Positions 46,515 to 55,986 of a stretch of 56,029 nt of DNA are shown piece by piece. This DNA comes from Eubacterium sp. Its GTDB lineage: Bacteria; Bacillota; Clostridia; Lachnospirales; Lachnospiraceae. The first letter of the stretch is position 1, and every line of letters starts with the position of its first letter. Below the pieces are notes generated by a model. The model was not told the origin of the DNA. It ran no database searches and saw only the letters and a program-made list of their open reading frames with translations. The translations under genes and the position numbers were made by a program. Location: positions 1 to 56,029 of the forward strand of contig JAFOIV010000092.1 of assembly GCA_017420535.1 (NCBI GenBank), written 5' to 3'.

Positions 46515-47684
46515 TTATTTTGCTACGCCACTGTTATAAGCTTCATCTGCAACAGCCTTTGCTACAGCCTTTGCAACTTCAGGGTTAAATGCGTCCGGAA
46601 TAATATAATCTTCTCTTAATTCATCATCCTTTACTATAGAAGCAATAGCTTTTGCAGCTGCCACCTTCATAGGTTCTGTGATCTGTCTTGCTTTTGAATC
46701 AAGAGCACCCCTGAATATTCCTGGGAATACAAGCACATTGTTGATCTGGTTTGGATAATCAGATCTTCCTGACGCTATAACTCTTGCCCCACCCTTCTTT
46801 GACTCTTCAGGCATGATCTCCGGAACAGGGTTTGCCATAGAAAATACGATAGCATCTTTTGCCATTGTGCTTACCATTTCTGCTGTTACAATTCCAGGTG
46901 CTGAAACGCCTACGAAGATATCTTTGCCCTTCATGATCTCGGCAAGATTTCCTCTTTCTTTATTCTTATTTGTGATCTCTGCCATTTCCTTCTGAGCCGG
47001 ATTCATCCACTCTTCACCTGGGCAGAGAGCTCCGTTCTTATCAACAAGTACAACATTTCCAATGCCGAATTTAAGCATAAGCTTGCAGATTGAGATACCG
47101 GCTGAACCAGCTCCACTAATAACTGCTGTTGCATTCTCAAATGTTCTTCCTGTAAGTCGGAGTGCGTTGATAAGGCCTGCGCATACTACAATAGCTGTTC
47201 CATGCTGATCATCGTGGAATACTGGAATATCAAGTTCTTCCTTAAGTCTTCTCTCAACTTCAAAACATCTTGGAGCTGAAATATCTTCAAGGTTGATTCC
47301 ACCGAAAGATGGAGCGATTCTCTTTACTGTCTCAACGATCTCGTCTACATCCTTTGTGTCAAGGCAGATCGGAAACGCATCAACTCCTGCAAATCTCTTG
47401 AAAAGAACTGACTTTCCTTCCATAACCGGAATAGCAGCAAGAGGTCCGATATCTCCAAGACCCAGTACCGCTGTTCCATCAGATACAACTGCAACTGTAT
47501 TAGCCTTACATGTATATTTATAAACATCAGATGGATCTGCAGCAATCTTTCTGCAAGGTTCTGCTACGCCTGGTGTATAAGCTGTTGAAAGATCATCTCT
47601 TGTCTCAATACGCACCTTTGAATTAACTTCAAGTTTTCCTTTGTTTTCTTCATGCATCTTAAGACTTGCTTCATTAAAATCCAT
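46515..47684 (-). CDS. NAD(P)-dependent malic enzyme
   Basis: It decarboxylates malate to pyruvate. The 389-aa product is the short bacterial form without a phosphotransacetylase domain. Seen are the catalytic Tyr/Lys region (TAYTPGVAEPCRKIA), the metal-binding INLEDISAPRCFEVE and FHDDQHGTAIV, and the nucleotide fold ISGAGSAGISICKLM. ATG at 47684 follows GGAGGA; the longer frame is not supported. It is first gene of a five-gene same-strand run. Confidence 0.95.
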   Translation of the reverse strand: MDFNEASLKMHEENKGKLEVNSKVRIETRDDLSTAYTPGVAEPCRKIAADPSDVYKYTCKANTVAVVSDGTAVLGLGDIGPLAAIPVMEGKSVLFKRFAGVDAFPICLDTKDVDEIVETVKRIAPSFGGINLEDISAPRCFEVERRLKEELDIPVFHDDQHGTAIVVCAGLINALRLTGRTFENATAVISGAGSAGISICKLMLKFGIGNVVLVDKNGALCPGEEWMNPAQKEMAEITNKNKERGNLAEIMKGKDIFVGVSAPGIVTAEMVSTMAKDAIVFSMANPVPEIMPEESKKGGARVIASGRSDYPNQINNVLVFPGIFRGALDSKARQITEPMKVAAAKAIASIVKDDELREDYIIPDAFNPEVAKAVAKAVADEAYNSGVAK

Positions 47685-47789
47685 CTTTAATTCCTCCATG
47701 TAATTCATTAGTATATTTAATATCACTTTATTCTTATGGCACTTTACCCAAACAAAGTGTTTTCAACAATAATAAGTCCATTTATAGTA

Positions 47790-48659
47790 CTATGTCAAAT
47801 CAAAAAGGCTGAGCTGAACGCCTTCAGTACGATTTTCATACTTTCTCGCATAGGACTGGATATCCTTACTTCCAAAAAGTATGCCATTCTCTCTGCAAAA
47901 TCCCATGTAAAGGCGCCCCATTTCCCCGGACTTATCCACTAGAAAACTGTCCTTAAGCCCTTCTTTAACGTATAGATCATAAATATTTTTATCTCTTTTT
48001 TCTAATTCCTGATAAAAATATTCCTTCATGCCGCTTTGAAGTACCGTCTTAAAGTCATGGGTATCAATCGCTTTTACGCCATACTCTTTTCCAAGCTTAA
48101 GAAGTTCTTCCAAAGAAGAAATGTCAGCATTTATATAAGGCAGCATCGGAAATATATCCAGTATAAGATCTACTCCCGTCCCCTTAAAGCCTTCCAATAT
48201 ATCCAAAATATCCTGAATGTTTTTTTCTCTTCCTTCTATTAAAGAATATTTTTCTTTATCTAAAGTAGGAAGCATCACCCTCAGCACGCATTTTGTATGA
48301 CTGGCGATATCCATCAGCACATCTTTATCCCTTAGCACCAGCGGATCTCTTGTGGTGATATCTATTCCAAAATCAAATCTTGCTATGGCCTTGAGACATT
48401 TTCGCATTATCTCATATTCTTTTTCAAGGGCATTATAAGGATCCGAAAGCCCTGTATAAATGATGCCTCTATTTCGCTTCTTCCTTAATTCCTGAGAGAT
48501 AAGCGCCGGGGCATCCATCTTAATCCCCATTTCATCCGGATTCTCAATCCTTGCGCCCTTGGCCCGAACCTTTGATACAATGCAACTATCCGTGGCTCCC
48601 CTATATATATTAATACCATTTTGTGCGGTAATAATTGATTTCGCCAAAATCTGATACAT
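47790..48659 (-). CDS. SplB/radical-SAM-like protein with a lost cluster motif and a clamp-binding C-terminus
   Basis: 289 aa related to spore-photolyase-like radical SAM proteins: IYTGLSDPYNALEKEYEIMRKCLK and FGIDITTRDPLVLRD match the family's later motifs. The family's N-terminal GCxHxCxYC that binds the [4Fe-4S] cluster is replaced by GATDSCIVS. Two of three cysteines are gone, so normal radical SAM chemistry is unlikely. The protein ends EGVQLSLFDLT; QLSLF fits the QL(S/D)LF sliding-clamp-binding consensus exactly. It lies 17 bases after jetC and is probably co-transcribed, in the position where JetD might be expected. Function unknown. Confidence 0.8.
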   Translation of the reverse strand: MYQILAKSIITAQNGINIYRGATDSCIVSKVRAKGARIENPDEMGIKMDAPALISQELRKKRNRGIIYTGLSDPYNALEKEYEIMRKCLKAIARFDFGIDITTRDPLVLRDKDVLMDIASHTKCVLRVMLPTLDKEKYSLIEGREKNIQDILDILEGFKGTGVDLILDIFPMLPYINADISSLEELLKLGKEYGVKAIDTHDFKTVLQSGMKEYFYQELEKRDKNIYDLYVKEGLKDSFLVDKSGEMGRLYMGFCRENGILFGSKDIQSYARKYENRTEGVQLSLFDLT

Positions 48660-48676
48660 TTTAACCTCTTATAATA

Positions 48677-51600
48677 TTAAATAAAGTCAAATGTTGCCTG
48701 TTCGTAATCAAGTTCGTTATATTCAAGCTCTTCGCCATTGGTATGACTGTCGTATCTGACAACAACTGTTACCTGTTTACCTGATGCCATCTGCTGTCCT
48801 AAGACATAATTAACATCAAACTTTCCTGTAATTTCAGGAGTTGCTCCTCTAGAAGGAACTATCAGCTGCACATGGTTTGTTCTAAGCAGCGCAAATATCG
48901 GCTCCCAGATATAAATATCCTTGGCTGCACCGAAAGGATTATCTATAAATATAGTCTTTGTTCTCTTATCCGGATCGGAAATGGCATACATTCCCGAAAT
49001 GTAATTAATGACTGAAACCAAAAACTGGATATAGATACCCTGAGACTGTCCTGTCGAACCAACCGCCTCCTCATATTTAAGATAACGGCTCTGTTCTCTT
49101 ATTCTTTCTCTCTTATATAACTGAAGTTTTATCTTATTCATATCAGTAACTATAACAGAGAACATCTTCTTAATGGCCAGTTCTGACTGAAGGAATTTAA
49201 TACGTTCTGCATCATTTTCCTTCTTATCAGCAGTCTCTACTATCTTATCGATATAATCTGCCATTCTCTCTCTGATAAACTCATCCTTAATATAAGGAAT
49301 AGAAAGCTTGATCATCTGGATAGATTCATTTCCAATGACGATCTGAGACAACTTAGGCAGCTTATCTAACTCTGTCCTTACATCAAGACATCTCTCGATA
49401 CACTGATCCACGAAGTTGTTCTTAAGTCTTTCCATGTCTGAAAGACTGCTGTCAACTCTTTCCTTCTCAAGTCTGATAAGGTCCTTCATGGAATCAAGAT
49501 TCTTCAGAAGTTCTGTAGCCTCAGCATAAGTCTTTGGAGTTTCAATATCATCCCTGATGGATGCCGCCAGCTGAAAAGCCCCCAGCATACCAAGGCTTTC
49601 AGTAACCTGCCCCTTAGTCTTAAGCATCTGGCTTCCAGCTCTTTCAATGGTCTTTTCAATCCTGTCATAAGAAAGGAGCAGTTCTTCAAAATGATCCCTT
49701 AAGCTTTCTCTATCTCCTTCGATCACAACAGCATAGCTGGTATCGATGTTATTCCTCTCTACGATTCTCTTTACATCTCTATAGAGATCCGCCATAATAT
49801 CCTGCTGCTTCTTATAATTATCCAGCTTTTCCTCAGCCTCTTTAGACATAGTCTTGGCTTTCTTTAATTCCTCTTCCTCACTTCTAATAGCTATGTCATA
49901 CTCATCATATGAAAGGTCGATGAAATTAAATTCCCCATATGCCGCATTTATATTCTGGATGGCATAATCGATGGAACCTGAAAGTCTCATAGCTTCATCT
50001 TTCTTCTGAGAAAGACTTGCAGAAATATCCTCACTCTGCTTTCTCACCCTGTCTATCTCAAGCTTAAGATGCTCTAATTCGTCTTCTTCAGGCTTAACAA
50101 ATGTTCCCGCATTATATTCATCCATAAGTTTTTCAGGATCAATTCCTGTTTCCTTAATGCGGTTTTCCTGTCTTCTGATACTGCTTTCAAGAGTATCAAG
50201 AAGCATGGCATTCTTTTCCTCATCTATAGCCTGCTGATCAGAGTCACTTATATAGCTCTTAAAAATATAGATCAGTTCTTCTTTTCCTCTATTATCCTCA
50301 GGATAATTCTTCTGCTGATAATAAGGCTGATAATGGCTGTTCCAGTCATCCTCTATATTCTTTAACTCTTCTTTTCTTTCTCTAAGAGCTTTGAAACATT
50401 CCTCTTTTTTACTTAATTCATCATCAAATCTGTCCTGGATCAGCACGCTTTCTTTCACGCATCTTACCTTACTAGCTGAAGCCTCATCCAAAGCTTTTGC
50501 TTTCTCATCAAATGAATTTTCGCAAACCAGGATCTTCTCTAAAATTTCAACATCAGATGTAAGAACTTTTATTCTTTCTTCATCCTTTGAAACAGCTTCT
50601 TCAATCTCTACTTCCTTAGCTTTAAGATTCTCAATATTTCTCTCGATCTTTTCTATTCCAGAGACTATTTTTTCTATCTCTGTCTCTACCTGCTTAAGAT
50701 CCTGGGCTGCACTTACATTTTCCTTAGATCCTGTGCGAAGTACAAAAAGAAGATCTTCTCTCTCTGTCTTTAGAGCATCCACAAGGAATAATCTTTCATT
50801 GCCAAGATTATCAATCTCATTATTTACATTTTCTAAATATCTATCTTTTGCTTTTTCATCCAGGAAATGATTCCCTGGAGTTCTTATTATCACTGCCCCA
50901 TCATTTAAGTTAAGGACCTTGTTTCCAAGTTTATCCTTATCATAAATAACAACTGAGCTTTCATTTGCAGTCATTTCTAAAAGTCCTGGATCCTGCGCTA
51001 ACTCGCTAAAATTGTCTGCAATAACTGAATATGGCAATTCCGGCTCAGCTTCAAGTAATTCCTTTCTTCTTTCAGGAGTTACAGCCGCAAGATAATCAGC
51101 TCCAAACATGGCTGTGCTGCCGTGTCTTGTGGTAATATAGTCGATCACCCTTTCCACGTCGCCGCTCATTTTAATTATCCTGCCGCGTTTTATCTCTTCA
51201 GCTCTCTTCTTATTCTTTCTTAATTCTCTTTCAATTTCTGCAATCCTGATTATATCTTTCTCTGTCTTTTCTCTGATAAGGTCTGAAAGGCTTGCCATAT
51301 CAGTTCCTTCAGGATCATGAGATGCATAGATATTTCTGATTCCCTTTAATTTGCCTTCGTTACTCTTAAATATCTCGTCACGCTCTCTATAAACCTCAGC
51401 TTCACGTTGAAGATTAAAAAGCTTATCATTTTCTTTGGCAACATTTTCCCTGGCAAGCTCAATCTCTTTTTTAACCTGCTCTAAAGAAAGCATCTTATTA
51501 TTCACAGAATTGCAAAGCTTATCTTTGTTTTCAGTTTTAGCAGCAATGATATTTTCAGTTTTATCAAATGCTACCTCACTTAAACCTTCTCTTAAAGTTC

Positions 51601-53080
51601 TTATCTCTTCCTTAATATGCTCAGTCTCTTCATTAAGGAACAAAATATTGCTATCTGCAACTGCAGCCCCTACTCTTGCCTCTTCAAGTACCTTGCTGTC
51701 TTTTTCAATCATGCTGCAGATCTCATCATAACTATCAGAAAGAGTCTTTATCTTTTCTATAAGATCCTCTTTCTCTTTTTTAAATATCTTATAAAGAGCC
51801 CCCACAACTAAAGTAAGTTCCTCTTCATCTTCTATATGCTTAGCCTTTGTAGAAGCCACTACTTTCTCATACTTAGCTTTATCATTTAAAAGATCAAGGA
51901 AATAAATAGCCGCCTTTTTCTCCTTAAGATTTCTGTCTTTCTTTTCTATAAGATCTTTTATTCTTATAGCTTCAGACTGCAATCCATCCAATTCCTTAAC
52001 TATTGTCTCATACTTCTTTTTATCTCTGGAAGTTCTTAAGTTCTCTAAAGAAGCTCTCTTACCTGTAAGGTATTCATAAGCCTGTTCTTTATTTTTCTTT
52101 AAAGAAAGAAGATATTCTTCGGAATTTTTTCTTTCCGCCTCACCTGTAACATAGATATCTCCAAGTTTCTTAGAAATCTCTTCCTCTTCTTTATAAAGAT
52201 CATTAAAGGAAATTATCCTGTCATAAAGAAGTGATATAAGTTCTGTCTCATGATCAAAAACCGCTATATCTTTCTTCTTCTCTGCCAGATTCTTAAGCTG
52301 ATCTTTAATAGACATAAGAAGATCTGCCGCAGAGTCACGACTTCCCTCTTCTTTATTTGTCTTTACCCTGTATGCTTTCTCAATTATCTCCTCAATAAGA
52401 AGATCCTCTATCACCTTACGGGTTGTCTTATAATTACTTTCAAAATATGTTCTTACGTGTCCTTCAGTCTTATTGATACCTCTGATTATCTCCCACTGGC
52501 TTTCATGAAGCCCATAATTACTGATAAACCTCTGATATTCCCCTTTTCTGTCAAACACAAAGACCCTGATATTATTATCTTTCCTTGAAAGATCCTGAAG
52601 ATAGTTTTTTAAAGCCTGATAGGAAATCCTCTCCTTATCCTTGATAAGTGGAAGATTAACAATATCATTTCTGTTATATTCCCTATAAAAAATGCAATAG
52701 TTAAAATAATCTATCGATGCTACATCTGACTTCTCAGTCTCCTGGTCCCTGTCTCTTGATTTTCTCGCGCAGAAACCGGTAGTCATATATTTATAACCGT
52801 CTTCTATATCCGGTTCATCCACCTTCCATTCAATAAGTGAATGGATAGTGGTATTACCGCAATTTTCTCTAAACAACTTCTCTATAGGCTGCTTTTCATC
52901 CAGTGTGGAATTAGGGATCACGCACTGCATAAGAAGAAGCATGAGTACAGACTTACCACCGCCATTGGCCAGATCATAGAGAGTATCCCTTCCATAAAGA
53001 CGCATGGTAAAGTCATCATACATCTGTGTGCCGAAGTTGTATTTAACATTATTTACTCTTATTCTGTTAATACTAGGCAT
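48677..53080 (-). CDS. jetC: SMC/MukB-like ATPase of a Wadjet/Mks-type complex (JetC)
   Basis: 1467 aa. The P-loop LANGGGKS (37-44) is at the N-terminus. About 1250 residues of mostly coiled coil (long E/K-rich stretches) surround a central hinge region. Near the C-terminus come a signature-like GSTGQSQG (about 1341-1348) and the Walker B region TIFIDNPFG (Asp at about 1380). This head-coil-hinge-coil-head layout is that of MukB and JetC, which load onto DNA as ATP-driven clamps. ATG at 53080 follows GGGAGG and overlaps the jetB stop by eight bases; the longer frame only reads into jetB. Residue after the Walker B Asp is Asn, not Glu. Confidence 0.88.
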   Translation of the reverse strand: MPSINRIRVNNVKYNFGTQMYDDFTMRLYGRDTLYDLANGGGKSVLMLLLMQCVIPNSTLDEKQPIEKLFRENCGNTTIHSLIEWKVDEPDIEDGYKYMTTGFCARKSRDRDQETEKSDVASIDYFNYCIFYREYNRNDIVNLPLIKDKERISYQALKNYLQDLSRKDNNIRVFVFDRKGEYQRFISNYGLHESQWEIIRGINKTEGHVRTYFESNYKTTRKVIEDLLIEEIIEKAYRVKTNKEEGSRDSAADLLMSIKDQLKNLAEKKKDIAVFDHETELISLLYDRIISFNDLYKEEEEISKKLGDIYVTGEAERKNSEEYLLSLKKNKEQAYEYLTGKRASLENLRTSRDKKKYETIVKELDGLQSEAIRIKDLIEKKDRNLKEKKAAIYFLDLLNDKAKYEKVVASTKAKHIEDEEELTLVVGALYKIFKKEKEDLIEKIKTLSDSYDEICSMIEKDSKVLEEARVGAAVADSNILFLNEETEHIKEEIRTLREGLSEVAFDKTENIIAAKTENKDKLCNSVNNKMLSLEQVKKEIELARENVAKENDKLFNLQREAEVYRERDEIFKSNEGKLKGIRNIYASHDPEGTDMASLSDLIREKTEKDIIRIAEIERELRKNKKRAEEIKRGRIIKMSGDVERVIDYITTRHGSTAMFGADYLAAVTPERRKELLEAEPELPYSVIADNFSELAQDPGLLEMTANESSVVIYDKDKLGNKVLNLNDGAVIIRTPGNHFLDEKAKDRYLENVNNEIDNLGNERLFLVDALKTEREDLLFVLRTGSKENVSAAQDLKQVETEIEKIVSGIEKIERNIENLKAKEVEIEEAVSKDEERIKVLTSDVEILEKILVCENSFDEKAKALDEASASKVRCVKESVLIQDRFDDELSKKEECFKALRERKEELKNIEDDWNSHYQPYYQQKNYPEDNRGKEELIYIFKSYISDSDQQAIDEEKNAMLLDTLESSIRRQENRIKETGIDPEKLMDEYNAGTFVKPEEDELEHLKLEIDRVRKQSEDISASLSQKKDEAMRLSGSIDYAIQNINAAYGEFNFIDLSYDEYDIAIRSEEEELKKAKTMSKEAEEKLDNYKKQQDIMADLYRDVKRIVERNNIDTSYAVVIEGDRESLRDHFEELLLSYDRIEKTIERAGSQMLKTKGQVTESLGMLGAFQLAASIRDDIETPKTYAEATELLKNLDSMKDLIRLEKERVDSSLSDMERLKNNFVDQCIERCLDVRTELDKLPKLSQIVIGNESIQMIKLSIPYIKDEFIRERMADYIDKIVETADKKENDAERIKFLQSELAIKKMFSVIVTDMNKIKLQLYKRERIREQSRYLKYEEAVGSTGQSQGIYIQFLVSVINYISGMYAISDPDKRTKTIFIDNPFGAAKDIYIWEPIFALLRTNHVQLIVPSRGATPEITGKFDVNYVLGQQMASGKQVTVVVRYDSHTNGEELEYNELDYEQATFDFI

Positions 53081-53789
53081 TATCGGTTCCTCCCAAAATG
53101 GTAAATATCTTACCCTTATATTCTTCAAAATAATTCTCAGCTATGGCTCTGAATCTGTCCGTTGGATAAAATCTCTCTTCAACAACATTAAATAATTTCT
53201 GTTCCTGAAGGAAATTAAAGCTAAGCTTTACAAATCCAAGTTTAGAACCACGTGAAGCTTTATTTCTGTCTTTATCTTCACTGGTAGCTGTAGGAAGTTC
53301 ATGCCAGAGAAGGCATACATTTCTAAAAGTTTCTTTAGAAGCTTCTAAATCTTTCTCAAATATCTCATCTTCCTTCGCGATCCTCGTTGCCGCTTCCGTA
53401 ACAAGAGCTATCATTTCATCAAGCTTAATATACTCTTTGATCTGATATGTACTTGAATCCGTATAGAAATAAAGCAGCGCCTGATACACGATAAAATAAA
53501 AAAGGAAAAGCTCTCTATTAACCTTAAAACCCATAGCCCTTTTTAGATCATCATTTGTATATCCAAATACTTTATTTCCGTCTCCTGCTGAGATAAATAT
53601 CGAATCATTATATTCATAAAGATTCAGATTAAGACTTTTTAACAGCTTTACAGTGATATCATACACCTCTGAATCAGAATAAAAATCATTATAAAGCTCT
53701 CTTGTTTCTTTATTTTGTTTTGACACATTTTTTCCTGTGATCAACGCACTATATATAGCTAACGCTTTTTCAAGACTCTTTTCTTCCAT
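53073..53789 (-). CDS. jetB: MukE-like accessory subunit (JetB, DUF6063-type)
   Basis: 238 aa, helical with winged-helix features: YFIVYQALLYFYTDSSTYQIKEYIKLDEMIALV and FLQEQKLFNVVEERFYPTDRFRAIAENYFEEY. By gene order (A-B-C) and size it is the MukE/JetB counterpart that binds the kleisin. The family name is from memory and should be checked by profile search. Its stop is inside the jetC start (ATGCCTAG), so the two are translationally coupled. Confidence 0.75.
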   Translation of the reverse strand: MEEKSLEKALAIYSALITGKNVSKQNKETRELYNDFYSDSEVYDITVKLLKSLNLNLYEYNDSIFISAGDGNKVFGYTNDDLKRAMGFKVNRELFLFYFIVYQALLYFYTDSSTYQIKEYIKLDEMIALVTEAATRIAKEDEIFEKDLEASKETFRNVCLLWHELPTATSEDKDRNKASRGSKLGFVKLSFNFLQEQKLFNVVEERFYPTDRFRAIAENYFEEYKGKIFTILGGTDNA

Positions 53790-53829
53790 CTTATTTCCCT
53801 ATCCACTATAGAATGATCATCTTATCTTT

Positions 53830-55383
53830 CTAACATCTATGAAATGCCATATTGCGTATCAGCATTTTTTCTTCCTTAGATGCCTCATCCTCTTCTGATT
53901 CATTTTCTCTATCCCCGATCACTATCTCATCAGGCATATATTCAATGTTAAAACTTATATCCTTATACAATTCCTTATCCGCATCTGAAAGTGTCTCCCA
54001 GGCCATTTTCTCAAGGAAAGTCTCGGTTTCATCCTTCATGATCTTCATGCTGTATGAATCTTTCTTTGCCAAATGTACCAGGAATGAATAATAATCTCTA
54101 TTTTCATATATCTCTTTTCCAAACTTGATCTCTAATATGGCATTAAGTTCAGAAAGAGTAACCTTTTCCCACCTAAGCAGTCGATCCAGTAATTCCTTAA
54201 AGAGAAGTCCAAGATTCTTTCCTACAACTTTAGAGAACTTTTCATCCTCATATTCGAAATTAAGATCCACCGGTTCATTTTCCCTCACTTCTCCCTTCAG
54301 ATTATCCTCACTCTTTGAAGTAACGATATTATCTACAAGGAATGCCGAAAAACTCTTTTCGATCTTTGGCATAAGAAATGGCATGAATATATGAGCCATA
54401 TCCTCAGGCCTGTCATTCTTTTCCATTACAGAAAGAGCATTATTAAAATCAAATACCGTTCTAAGCTGTTTTAATTTTGATCTTTCCACTAATTCATCCG
54501 TTATCCTCGAAAGTTCGGCAGTTGCAGCAATAAGTTCGCTGTGGCTTTCAATGGTCTTCTTTAATTCTGTTTCAAGAATAGTGATATCCCTCATTCCTTT
54601 AGAATCATGACCTGCCGCCATTCTTCCTACTGCCTTATCCACAAGAGCTTTATTTTTAGCAAAAGATTTTCTTTCTTCCTCAAACCAGAGAGAGGTACTG
54701 TCCATATAATCCTTTGCAGCCTTTGTTCCTTCATATATATCACGAAGCAATATCTTTATTACTTCATCTCTCTTCTTCTTAAGCCTTGTAACTTCAATAT
54801 TCATCCTTCTGATGACATCAATACCGCCACGGAAATTCTCTGATCTTATCATCTTTTCAAGAAGAAGCTGCTCTGTGGTAAGTGGGCTTTCGTCCTTTAC
54901 TTCCTTTGTAGAAAGGAAAAATTCTATGCCATCTCCTGTGATATGATAAACTACATTTTCATCTCTTATAGCGCTCTCTATAAGCTTTACATAGGATGTC
55001 TTCATCTTCTTTTCTTCCGGATCAAAGAAAGAAAATGTAAATGGACGTCCATCATTTCTTATCTTATCAAAAATGTATCTTATAAGTTCTGTTTCCTCAG
55101 TTTCTGATTCTTCCAAGCCAAAATCTCTTCTAAGTATCTGCCTTAAGAATTTCTCCACCATTTCATAAGTTACATCATTTTCATTAAAATTATTTTCATT
55201 TATAAAAAAGCGCAGCAAAGAAAGAGTCAGATAACCCATATCCAGACTCTGGTATTTCCCCTCTTTATATTGTGAAAATGATGTTTCATAAAGAGCAAAG
55301 AACGGATAGAACTTCTTTAAGTTCATCATTCTTTCAGATTGATTTTTTAATATATCATCTATTAAAACGTGATTCTCTGCCAC
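53830..55383 (-). CDS. jetA: MukF/kleisin-like subunit (JetA, DUF5716-type)
   Basis: 517 aa, cytoplasmic and rich in helix. N-terminal winged-helix-like segments (about 25-180, with YLTLSLLRFFINENNFNENDVTYEMVEKFLRQ) are followed by a middle of long charged helices (about 195-330). The C-terminal half is acidic (FEYEDEKFSKVVGKNLGLLF, then ENESEEDEASKEEK). This fits the kleisin that bridges the JetC heads. The start is GTG at 55383 after AGAGGAAG. It is 40 bases ahead of jetB and downstream of the promoter at 55470-55498. Confidence 0.75.
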   Translation of the reverse strand: MAENHVLIDDILKNQSERMMNLKKFYPFFALYETSFSQYKEGKYQSLDMGYLTLSLLRFFINENNFNENDVTYEMVEKFLRQILRRDFGLEESETEETELIRYIFDKIRNDGRPFTFSFFDPEEKKMKTSYVKLIESAIRDENVVYHITGDGIEFFLSTKEVKDESPLTTEQLLLEKMIRSENFRGGIDVIRRMNIEVTRLKKKRDEVIKILLRDIYEGTKAAKDYMDSTSLWFEEERKSFAKNKALVDKAVGRMAAGHDSKGMRDITILETELKKTIESHSELIAATAELSRITDELVERSKLKQLRTVFDFNNALSVMEKNDRPEDMAHIFMPFLMPKIEKSFSAFLVDNIVTSKSEDNLKGEVRENEPVDLNFEYEDEKFSKVVGKNLGLLFKELLDRLLRWEKVTLSELNAILEIKFGKEIYENRDYYSFLVHLAKKDSYSMKIMKDETETFLEKMAWETLSDADKELYKDISFNIEYMPDEIVIGDRENESEEDEASKEEKMLIRNMAFHRC

Positions 55384-55469
55384 TGTTTCTTCCTCTTACT
55401 AGCATTAGTAATTTGTCTATATCTTGGGCCTGATAAATATAGTTACCCCATGATAGACATAATCATTTG

Positions 55470-55498
55470 ATTATACCACAAATCCAAAACTTTTTTAA
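55470..55498 (-). promoter_or_regulatory. candidate promoter of jetA-jetB-jetC
   Basis: TATAAT (plus 55470-55475, perfect) and TTAAAA (plus 55493-55498, four of six) are spaced 17 bases on the minus strand. The -35 overlaps the stop codon of the upstream gene. The predicted start lies about 80 bases ahead of jetA. Confidence 0.65.
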
Positions 55499-55986
55499 AG
55501 TGCATGGCACGTTTGTTCCTCTTTTTCATACACCGTTATACACTCACCATATTCACCCATGAGCTCATTCCCTAGTTCAACTACAAAAGCTTTTTCAGGA
55601 AATAACGTTAATAACCGTATTTGCCAAAAATAGCGCAGCGTTTCTCCAAAAGTCTTTTTTAAATCATCATTTATAACGCTATTATCATTTATAAAAAAAT
55701 CTTCTAAAGACCCTGTATTTACTTCCATTTCAATTTTCTTTTTAGAATAATCATATTGCTTTTCAAGTTCTTCAACAAATCCCAACAACTCATTGTCACT
55801 ATGGTAATTATTTAAAAACATCTTGATAAACACATAATCTTTTACACGTACTATTTCAGGACAGAATAGAGCTGCCGCAGCAAGAGTCCCATCTATTTGA
55901 TTTTTATACAGTCCATAATGAACATTATCTGTCCAATCAGCAATTTTTATGTCATTATCTACCACACTTTTATATCGTTCTATCAT
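55495..55986 (-). CDS. protein of unknown function upstream of jetA
   Basis: 163 aa, not recognised. Acidic and apparently globular, without signal peptide or membrane helix. Notable segments are DWTDNVHYGLYKNQIDGTL, FIKMFLNNYHSDNELLGF and FGETLRYFWQIRLLTLFPEKAFVVE. An AT-rich gene with a GGTGAAAG site before its ATG at 55986. It is separated from jetA by 111 bases with a promoter, so it need not be part of that operon; its size would also suit an immunity-type protein. Confidence 0.7.
   Translation of the reverse strand: MIERYKSVVDNDIKIADWTDNVHYGLYKNQIDGTLAAAALFCPEIVRVKDYVFIKMFLNNYHSDNELLGFVEELEKQYDYSKKKIEMEVNTGSLEDFFINDNSVINDDLKKTFGETLRYFWQIRLLTLFPEKAFVVELGNELMGEYGECITVYEKEEQTCHAL

What the first reader, a model, noticed from the sequence alone, without database searches (positions are those of the whole stretch)
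47790..55383. JetABC-type SMC operon without the JetD nuclease, paired with a different partner gene
Gene order kleisin-like, MukE-like, MukB-like ATPase (53830-55383, 53073-53789, 48677-53080), with an 8-base coupling of the last two, matches Wadjet/MksBEF systems. In Wadjet a Toprim-type nuclease, JetD, normally accompanies these genes and cuts plasmids. No such gene is in the window: the gene behind jetC, only 17 bases away, is a SplB-like protein. Either this is a housekeeping Mks-type condensin in a lineage that may lack MukBEF, or a defence variant with a new effector. The surrounding genes are central metabolism, not a defence island, which favours the first or a fixed system.
Basis: partly seen in the sequence, partly recalled or inferred. 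Interest (0 to 1): 0.85.

Follow-up and report, generated by a model that had tools for sequence, protein, structure and literature searches.

The report
Nuclease-free Wadjet with dead radical-SAM partner
A DNA-looping protein machine normally known for destroying plasmids is carried, without its cutting enzyme, as a fixed chromosomal gene set in a group of gut and rumen bacteria, where its neighbour is a DNA-repair-like enzyme that has lost its iron-sulfur active centre but is still kept by selection, pointing to a housekeeping rather than a defence role.

Summary
Confirmed: type III-like jetA, jetB, jetC lie at the stated places without jetD; the SplB-like gene starts 17 bases after jetC. 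In the own genus (that of Eubacterium ruminantium) all 51 genomes whose jetC end is readable have the SplB-like gene next; JetD-like matches occur in 11 of 61 genomes, none near this operon. JetC has no match in 50,697 phage records and one weak match in 72,556 plasmids. So: a fixed, nuclease-free JetABC. New: the partner lacks the radical-SAM motif CxxxCxxC in 56 of 56 own-genus copies read at this locus, while 18 operonic copies of other genera and 20 paralogs keep it; the tree fits a single loss, under purifying selection. Its fold resembles spore photoproduct lyase; it ends in QLSLF, a sliding-clamp-binding consensus that 9 of 14 other type III JetC tails also show. Against partnership: five genomes keep the partner without jetABC, two other genomes the reverse, and no specific coevolution appears. 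Function is inferred.

The parts
53830..55383 (-). jetA (kleisin-like subunit, JetA3)
   Evidence: PADLOC PDLC00560 E 1.7e-183, residues 1-515 of 517
53073..53789 (-). jetB (KITE-like subunit, JetB3, DUF6063)
   Evidence: PADLOC E 1.5e-88; Pfam DUF6063 5.2e-43
48677..53080 (-). jetC (SMC-like ATPase, JetC3/DUF3584)
   Evidence: PADLOC PDLC00581 E 0, 1578.9 bits over residues 1-1467
52946..52966 (-). jetC Walker A, NGGGKSV
   Evidence: NGGGKSV in 122 and NGGGKSI in 5 of 127 JetC sequences examined (some genomes are in that set twice)
48929..48949 (-). jetC Walker B region, FIDNPFG (Asp-Asn where Asp-Glu is usual, recalled)
   Evidence: found in 125 of 127 (no pattern match in 2); same Asp-Asn in JetD-bearing type III JetC
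48680..48700 (-). jetC C-terminal tail QATFDFI, divergent sliding-clamp-motif-like peptide
   Evidence: Qxx[FL]x?[FLI] in the last 15 residues in 94 of 95 distinct complete JetC ends; only 3 of 95 meet the published consensus, the window does not
47790..48659 (-). SplB-like pseudo-radical-SAM protein, 289 aa
48573..48596 (-). place of the lost CxxxCxxC: ATDSCIVS
47802..47846 (-). C-terminal tail of the SplB-like protein: R-x-Y-x-N...G-x-Q stretch followed by QLSLF (clamp-binding consensus)
   Evidence: R272, Y274, N276 in 18 of 18 intact and 55 of 55 lost rows at the operon; in 2, 1 and 0 of 20 paralogs; motif counts
46515..47726 (-). malic enzyme, near-constant downstream neighbour (context, not part of the system)
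   Evidence: Pfam malic 1.1e-33; synteny
55495..55986 (-). 163-aa protein of unknown family upstream of jetA (context)
   Evidence: no match over a cut-off; among the loci found only in G042

Best explanation
SHOWN by sequence: a vertically inherited, nuclease-free JetABC complex of the type III branch sits in a core-gene locus across the genus, with a SplB-like radical-SAM homologue as fourth gene that lacks its [4Fe-4S] cysteines (the tree fits one loss) yet stays under purifying selection. INFERRED: JetABC is an ATP-driven DNA-translocating or loop-forming complex working on the chromosome beside ordinary SMC, much as MksBEF does in Pseudomonas; without JetD it does not cut plasmids. The partner no longer does radical chemistry; it keeps the barrel and works as a DNA- or clamp-bound adaptor or reader, docking on the sliding clamp DnaN through its C-terminal QLSLF, where JetC (tail Q-x-x-F-D-F) may dock too. 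Likelihoods: fixed JetD-less complex about 0.9; cluster-less protein about 0.9; chromosomal (non-defence) role about 0.6; clamp docking of the partner about 0.5; physical or functional link between partner and JetABC about 0.35.
For: JetABC homology. Own genus: jetC in 54 of 61 genomes, jetA in 50 of 61; three of the 54 (G014, G019, G032) are cut by contig ends, and in the other 51 (window included) the SplB-like gene follows on the same strand. JetD_C matches in 11 of 61 own-genus genomes (G018's is below the cut-off), none near this operon; 13 of 37 genomes reached from named loci have one. In 13 of 16 fetched stretches around such matches JetD sits beside other, separate jet genes (not so in L193, L199, L203). 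JetC tree: the SplB-like neighbour is confined to one 66-row clade and the cysteine-less form to one 47-row clade. Cysteines: absent in 56 of 56 own-genus copies read at this locus, present in 18 of 18 operonic copies outside the genus and 20 of 20 paralogs fetched; one change on the protein tree, also with the motif columns left out. dN/dS 0.10 for window versus G042 and G018. ATPase motifs kept. No JetC on phages, one weak plasmid match. Clamp motif in the last 30 residues: relaxed form 79 of 93 SplB-like proteins versus 9 of 1151 other proteins; published form 32 of 93 versus 7 of 1151. Type III JetC from other Bacillota: published form in 9 of 14; type II JetC 0 of 8. P. [quoted passage not shown]
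Against: No experiment. G003, G009, G013, G024 and G051 keep the cysteine-less gene with no jetA or jetC match (G003 and G051 are fragmented assemblies), and G009 versus G013 is under strong constraint (dN/dS 0.03, dS saturated at 2.07), so the protein has some role without JetABC. L144 and L150 have jetABC while their genomes have no match to the SplB-like protein. Mirror-tree test in 31 genomes: partial correlation with JetC 0.40 given malic and Bmp, but 0.52 with malic enzyme given JetC and Bmp, so no specific coevolution. The window JetC tail misses the published clamp consensus (3 of 95 Lachnospiraceae-type JetC ends meet it); of five JetD-bearing relatives two meet it. PADLOC models label the proteins as Wadjet, and a JetD working in trans in the 11 of 61 genomes is not excluded. 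In the JetC tree the place of JetD-bearing G063 among the JetD-less branches is unresolved and long branches meet at the outgroup, so one single loss of JetD is not shown.
Confidence: 0.55

Rival explanations
1. Defence system: the SplB-like protein replaces JetD as the effector, and JetABC still senses small circular DNA.
For: JetABC proteins match defence models at near full length; fourth gene coupled behind jetC (median gap 24 bases in the cysteine-less loci, 21 in the intact ones, range 6-248).
Against: The effector would be a barrel without cluster cysteines and with no nuclease family match; locus fixed and syntenic, JetC absent from phages and nearly from plasmids; jet operons with JetD coexist in some of the same genomes; partner survives without jetABC.
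Confidence: 0.12
2. No functional link: jetABC and the SplB-like gene are unrelated neighbours held together by vertical descent in a stable core locus.
For: Malic enzyme is nearly as constant a neighbour (48 of 51); no specific coevolution; each occurs without the other.
Against: Same strand in all 95 loci counted (own-genus genomes partly twice) with short gaps, kept across several genera; operon-linked copies share tail residues that the paralogs mostly lack, though that may only mark descent.
Confidence: 0.35
3. JetABC works in trans with a JetD encoded elsewhere, so it is still a plasmid-cutting Wadjet.
For: 11 of 61 own-genus genomes, this one included, have a JetD_C match elsewhere.
Against: 50 of 61 have none while jetC is in 54 of 61 (many assemblies are incomplete). 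In five own-genus genomes whose JetD surroundings were read (G000, G002, G042, G043, G056) it sits in its own jet operon; the other six were not read.
Confidence: 0.08
4. The cysteine-less gene is decaying after duplication and is on the way out.
For: 29 of 61 own-genus genomes have two or more matches, and the 15 own-genus second copies that I fetched are intact; long branches.
Against: Full-length open frames of 280 aa or more in the loci at 31-85 percent identity to the window copy, dN/dS about 0.1, residues invariant across barrel and tail; this genome keeps only this copy.
Confidence: 0.07

Closest known systems
Wadjet type III (JetD-A-B-C)
   Same: JetA3, JetB3, JetC3 families and order A-B-C; intact Walker A; the JetD-bearing relative in G063 (L083) has jetD directly upstream
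   Different: no jetD; fixed core locus; extra SplB-like gene; JetC tail QxxFDF
[quoted passage not shown] PMC10586767, passages)
   Same: SMC, kleisin and KITE set without the nuclease, beside an ordinary SMC
   Different: DUF3584 type III branch by model match; SplB-like neighbour; chromosome role not shown here
Spore photoproduct lyase and SplB-like radical-SAM proteins (PA0069 and Rv2578c families)
   Different: no CxxxCxxC; scores far below NCBIfam cut-offs (79 versus 360; 61.1 versus 430)
Archaeal SplB-like genes beside nreB (PMC4929162, passages)
   Same: SplB-like protein next to a gene for a possible sliding-clamp (PCNA) binder
   Different: there the possible clamp motif is in the neighbour, and the SplB-like protein is discussed as an enzyme

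Membership tests
Wadjet (JetABCD), type III | JetA, JetB, JetC homologues in order | tested here: met
Wadjet (JetABCD), type III | JetD Toprim nuclease in the operon | tested here: not met
   the upstream side of this contig itself is unseen
Wadjet (JetABCD), type III | restriction of small circular plasmids | not testable with these tools
   needs experiment
MksBEF-type chromosomal condensin | SMC, kleisin and KITE subunits without nuclease | tested here: met
MksBEF-type chromosomal condensin | sequence membership of MksB, MksE, MksF | not tested
   best matches were JetA3, JetB3, JetC3 models; no dedicated Mks comparison was run
MksBEF-type chromosomal condensin | role in chromosome organisation | not testable with these tools
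   needs experiment
Radical SAM enzyme | CxxxCxxC for the [4Fe-4S] cluster | tested here: not met
   absent in 56 of 56 own-genus copies read at this locus; present in 20 of 20 fetched paralogs and 18 of 18 operonic copies outside the genus
Radical SAM enzyme | radical-SAM barrel fold | tested here: met
PA0069 and Rv2578c equivalog families | NCBIfam curated score | tested here: not met
   79 bits versus 360 and 61.1 versus 430
Spore photoproduct lyase | closest solved fold | tested here: inconclusive
   first row but tied within one Z unit with other radical-SAM proteins; not among the 50 rows shown
Sliding-clamp ligand | published consensus (PMC11139829, passages) in a flexible tail: SplB-like protein | tested here: met
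   QLSLF at residues 282-286; last block of the model at pLDDT 55
Sliding-clamp ligand | published consensus in the window JetC tail | tested here: not met
   QATFDF has Phe where the consensus has Leu or Met
Sliding-clamp ligand | binding to DnaN | not testable with these tools
   needs experiment

The most novel reading that the evidence does not exclude
Type III JetABC complexes are tethered to the replication sliding clamp by a C-terminal motif on JetC, and in these Lachnospiraceae a nuclease-free version works at the fork together with a clamp-bound, catalytically dead spore-photoproduct-lyase-like protein that reads damaged or abnormal DNA instead of repairing it.
Probability: 0.25. Interest if true: 0.85.

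Novelty: new variant of a known kind. Interest (0 to 1): 0.6.

Why it matters
It offers what looks like a further case, in another branch than Pseudomonas MksBEF, of a plasmid-cutting SMC complex turned into a nuclease-free fixed chromosomal one, with JetD-bearing, JetD-less, SplB-linked and cysteine-less forms all visible in related bacteria. It gives a radical-SAM pseudoenzyme whose intact relatives sit in the same operon of other genera, and a directly testable sliding-clamp motif on type III JetC. On the last point three full-text searches found nothing that joins the two: (Wadjet with sliding clamp) held one paper, on an archaeal virus, which I did not open; two searches listed only their top 15 of 216 and 10 of 230 papers, none about both.

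Tried and rejected
Rejected: new nuclease effector (no nuclease family match for the partner). Rejected: condensin replacing a missing SMC (own SMC present). Rejected: mobile defence island (malic enzyme, citrate synthase and ribosomal-protein genes nearby; no phage match). Led nowhere: mirror-tree coevolution; promoter and terminator scan no better than shuffles (26 versus 29.0 and 4 versus 4.1); paper search on radical-SAM pseudoenzymes (two papers listed, neither about this); PA0069 in a P. aeruginosa condensin paper is only part of a strain name for a marker site (PMC7485682, one passage). The Foldseek list did not show spore photoproduct lyase among its 50 rows; the VIA-align second look put it first, tied with others. 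Walker B Asp-Asn was considered as a sign of a dead motor and dropped because JetD-bearing type III JetC has it too.

Limits: trees are quick-method with SH-aLRT only (support of the cysteine-less group 89, 83); a single origin is not ruled out rather than proved. ORF starts are mechanical. The 27 cysteine-less loci among the 80 are own-genus assemblies met again, by their contig lengths, and one search's 77 cysteine-less loci include such doubles. Of the 35 named loci without the SplB-like gene at least four (L149, L157, L163, L166) end too soon after jetC to judge. I fetched 20 paralogs (15 of the own genus); about as many further second copies listed, a 100-residue piece in G055 and the partial match in G032 were not read. 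Around JetD matches I read 5 of 11 own-genus genomes. The background set comes from genes of the fetched loci, not from whole genomes, and the SplB-like rows are related, so counts are not independent. Of the 14 type III JetCs only L216 was seen to have jetD. Only one of the two Y-family polymerases of this genome shows a clamp motif near its end. The aldolase named in the full report was recognised from memory, not by a search.

Full report
WHAT IS THERE. JetA, JetB and JetC match PADLOC type III models at near full length (1.7e-183, 1.5e-88, 0). JetC overlaps the end of jetB by 8 bases and the SplB-like gene starts 17 bases after the jetC stop. Downstream are malic enzyme, a Bmp-domain protein, a phosphoesterase and citrate synthase, and farther on ribosomal-protein genes with secY: core chromosome. 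The window is the whole contig.

JETD. The own genome has one JetD_C match, on contig C14, beside its own type II-like jet genes. Among 99 genomes (61 of the own genus) 18 have a match, 11 of them in the own genus (one, G018, below the cut-off), none near this operon. In G063, of the same order, jetD lies directly upstream of a related jetABC, the order also annotated in Pontibacillus. Of 37 genomes of named loci (five of them own-genus assemblies met again) 13 have JetD_C matches. I fetched 16 stretches around JetD matches, 14 of the 15 and two: in 13 the JetD sits beside other jet genes; L193 and L203 are cut by contig ends and L199 shows no JetABC that my queries recognise.

HOW COMMON. In the own genus jetA is found in 50 of 61 genomes and jetC in 54 of 61. 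Three of the 54 (G014, G019, G032) are cut before the end of jetC; the other 51, this window included, have the SplB-like gene next on the same strand, followed in 48 by malic enzyme (not found in L037, L061, L078). Most of the 18 are titled Lachnospiraceae; one is titled Bacteroides, which I take for a mislabelled bin. Eubacterium ruminantium ATCC 17233 (L128) has the contig length of G029 of the own genus. In the JetC tree the SplB-like neighbour is confined to one 66-row clade and the cysteine-less form to one 47-row clade, whose one exception (L055) is a cut contig. Four JetD-bearing JetCs were set as outgroup on a very long branch; the JetD-bearing G063 row falls in an unresolved fork with JetD-less branches, so the number of JetD losses is open. 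JetC has no match in 50,697 phage records and one weak match in 72,556 plasmids. I read this as a vertically inherited chromosomal system.

TAILS. The partner ends in RKYENRTEGVQLSLFDLT. R272, Y274 and N276 are in 18 of 18 intact and 55 of 55 lost rows at the operon, and in 2, 1 and 0 of 20 paralogs. QLSLF meets the published clamp-binding consensus Q-aliphatic-x-[L/M]-[F/L] (PMC13254535 and PMC11139829, passages). As a check, one of the two Y-family polymerases of this genome has QLGLF. Published form in the last 30 residues: 32 of 93 SplB-like proteins versus 7 of 1151 others; relaxed form 79 of 93 versus 9 of 1151 (the rows are related, so not independent). Lachnospiraceae-type JetC ends mostly in Q-x-[T/S]-F-D-F or near it, outside the consensus (3 of 95 meet it); of five JetD-bearing relatives two meet it (QMSLF, QLTLF). 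In a sample of 149 genomes of the phylum 13 have such a JetC; with the Pontibacillus plasmid that makes 14 tails, of which 9 meet the consensus, such as QINLF, QITLF, QVSMF and QASLF, and 5 do not. Type II JetCs: 0 of 8. Searches showed me no report of this.

WHAT SPEAKS AGAINST A TIGHT PARTNERSHIP. G009, G013, G024, G051 and G003 carry the cysteine-less gene but no jetA or jetC match. In G009, G024 and G051 a gene that I recognise as fructose-bisphosphate aldolase, found upstream of jetA in several other loci, lies near, which suggests deletion of jetABC. L144 and L150 show the reverse: jetABC present, no match to the SplB-like protein in their genomes. Distances of the partner follow malic enzyme at least as well as JetC (0.52 versus 0.40).

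MECHANISM AND VERDICT. [quoted passage not shown] The partner most likely works without radical chemistry, as a clamp- or DNA-bound adaptor. SplB-like genes are elsewhere found with SOS-repair genes (PMC3765255, passages) and beside archaeal nreB, whose product may bind the clamp PCNA (PMC4929162, passages). These functional steps are inferred. It is a new variant of a known kind; the surprising parts are the pseudoenzyme inside an SMC operon and the clamp-like tails of type III JetC.

Noticed in passing
window 52000-55986: Against G042 the upstream gene, jetA, jetB and the first part of jetC are 97-99.8 percent identical while the rest of jetC, the SplB-like gene and malic enzyme are about 79-94 percent: a recent exchange with a breakpoint near 52,000-52,500.
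   Followed up: partly
L216-L229 and L192-L197, JetC ends: Type III JetC proteins of diverse Bacillota often end in sliding-clamp-motif-like peptides; the eight type II JetCs examined do not.
   Followed up: partly
window 48929-48949 and type III JetC of other genomes: Walker B region reads Asp-Asn rather than the usual Asp-Glu (recalled) in JetC with and without JetD.
   Followed up: no
L086 8795-15406 (G000 contig C14): A separate type II-like jet gene set with a JetD of 408 aa lies elsewhere in the same genome.
   Followed up: partly
window 55495-55986: 163-aa protein of no known family upstream of jetA; among the loci found only in G042.
   Followed up: no
L100 (G011 contig C11): An intact SplB-like paralog match starts about 130 bases after a JetD_C match of another jet system; in G043 a paralog lies about 8 kb from a JetD_C match. 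May be chance.
   Followed up: no
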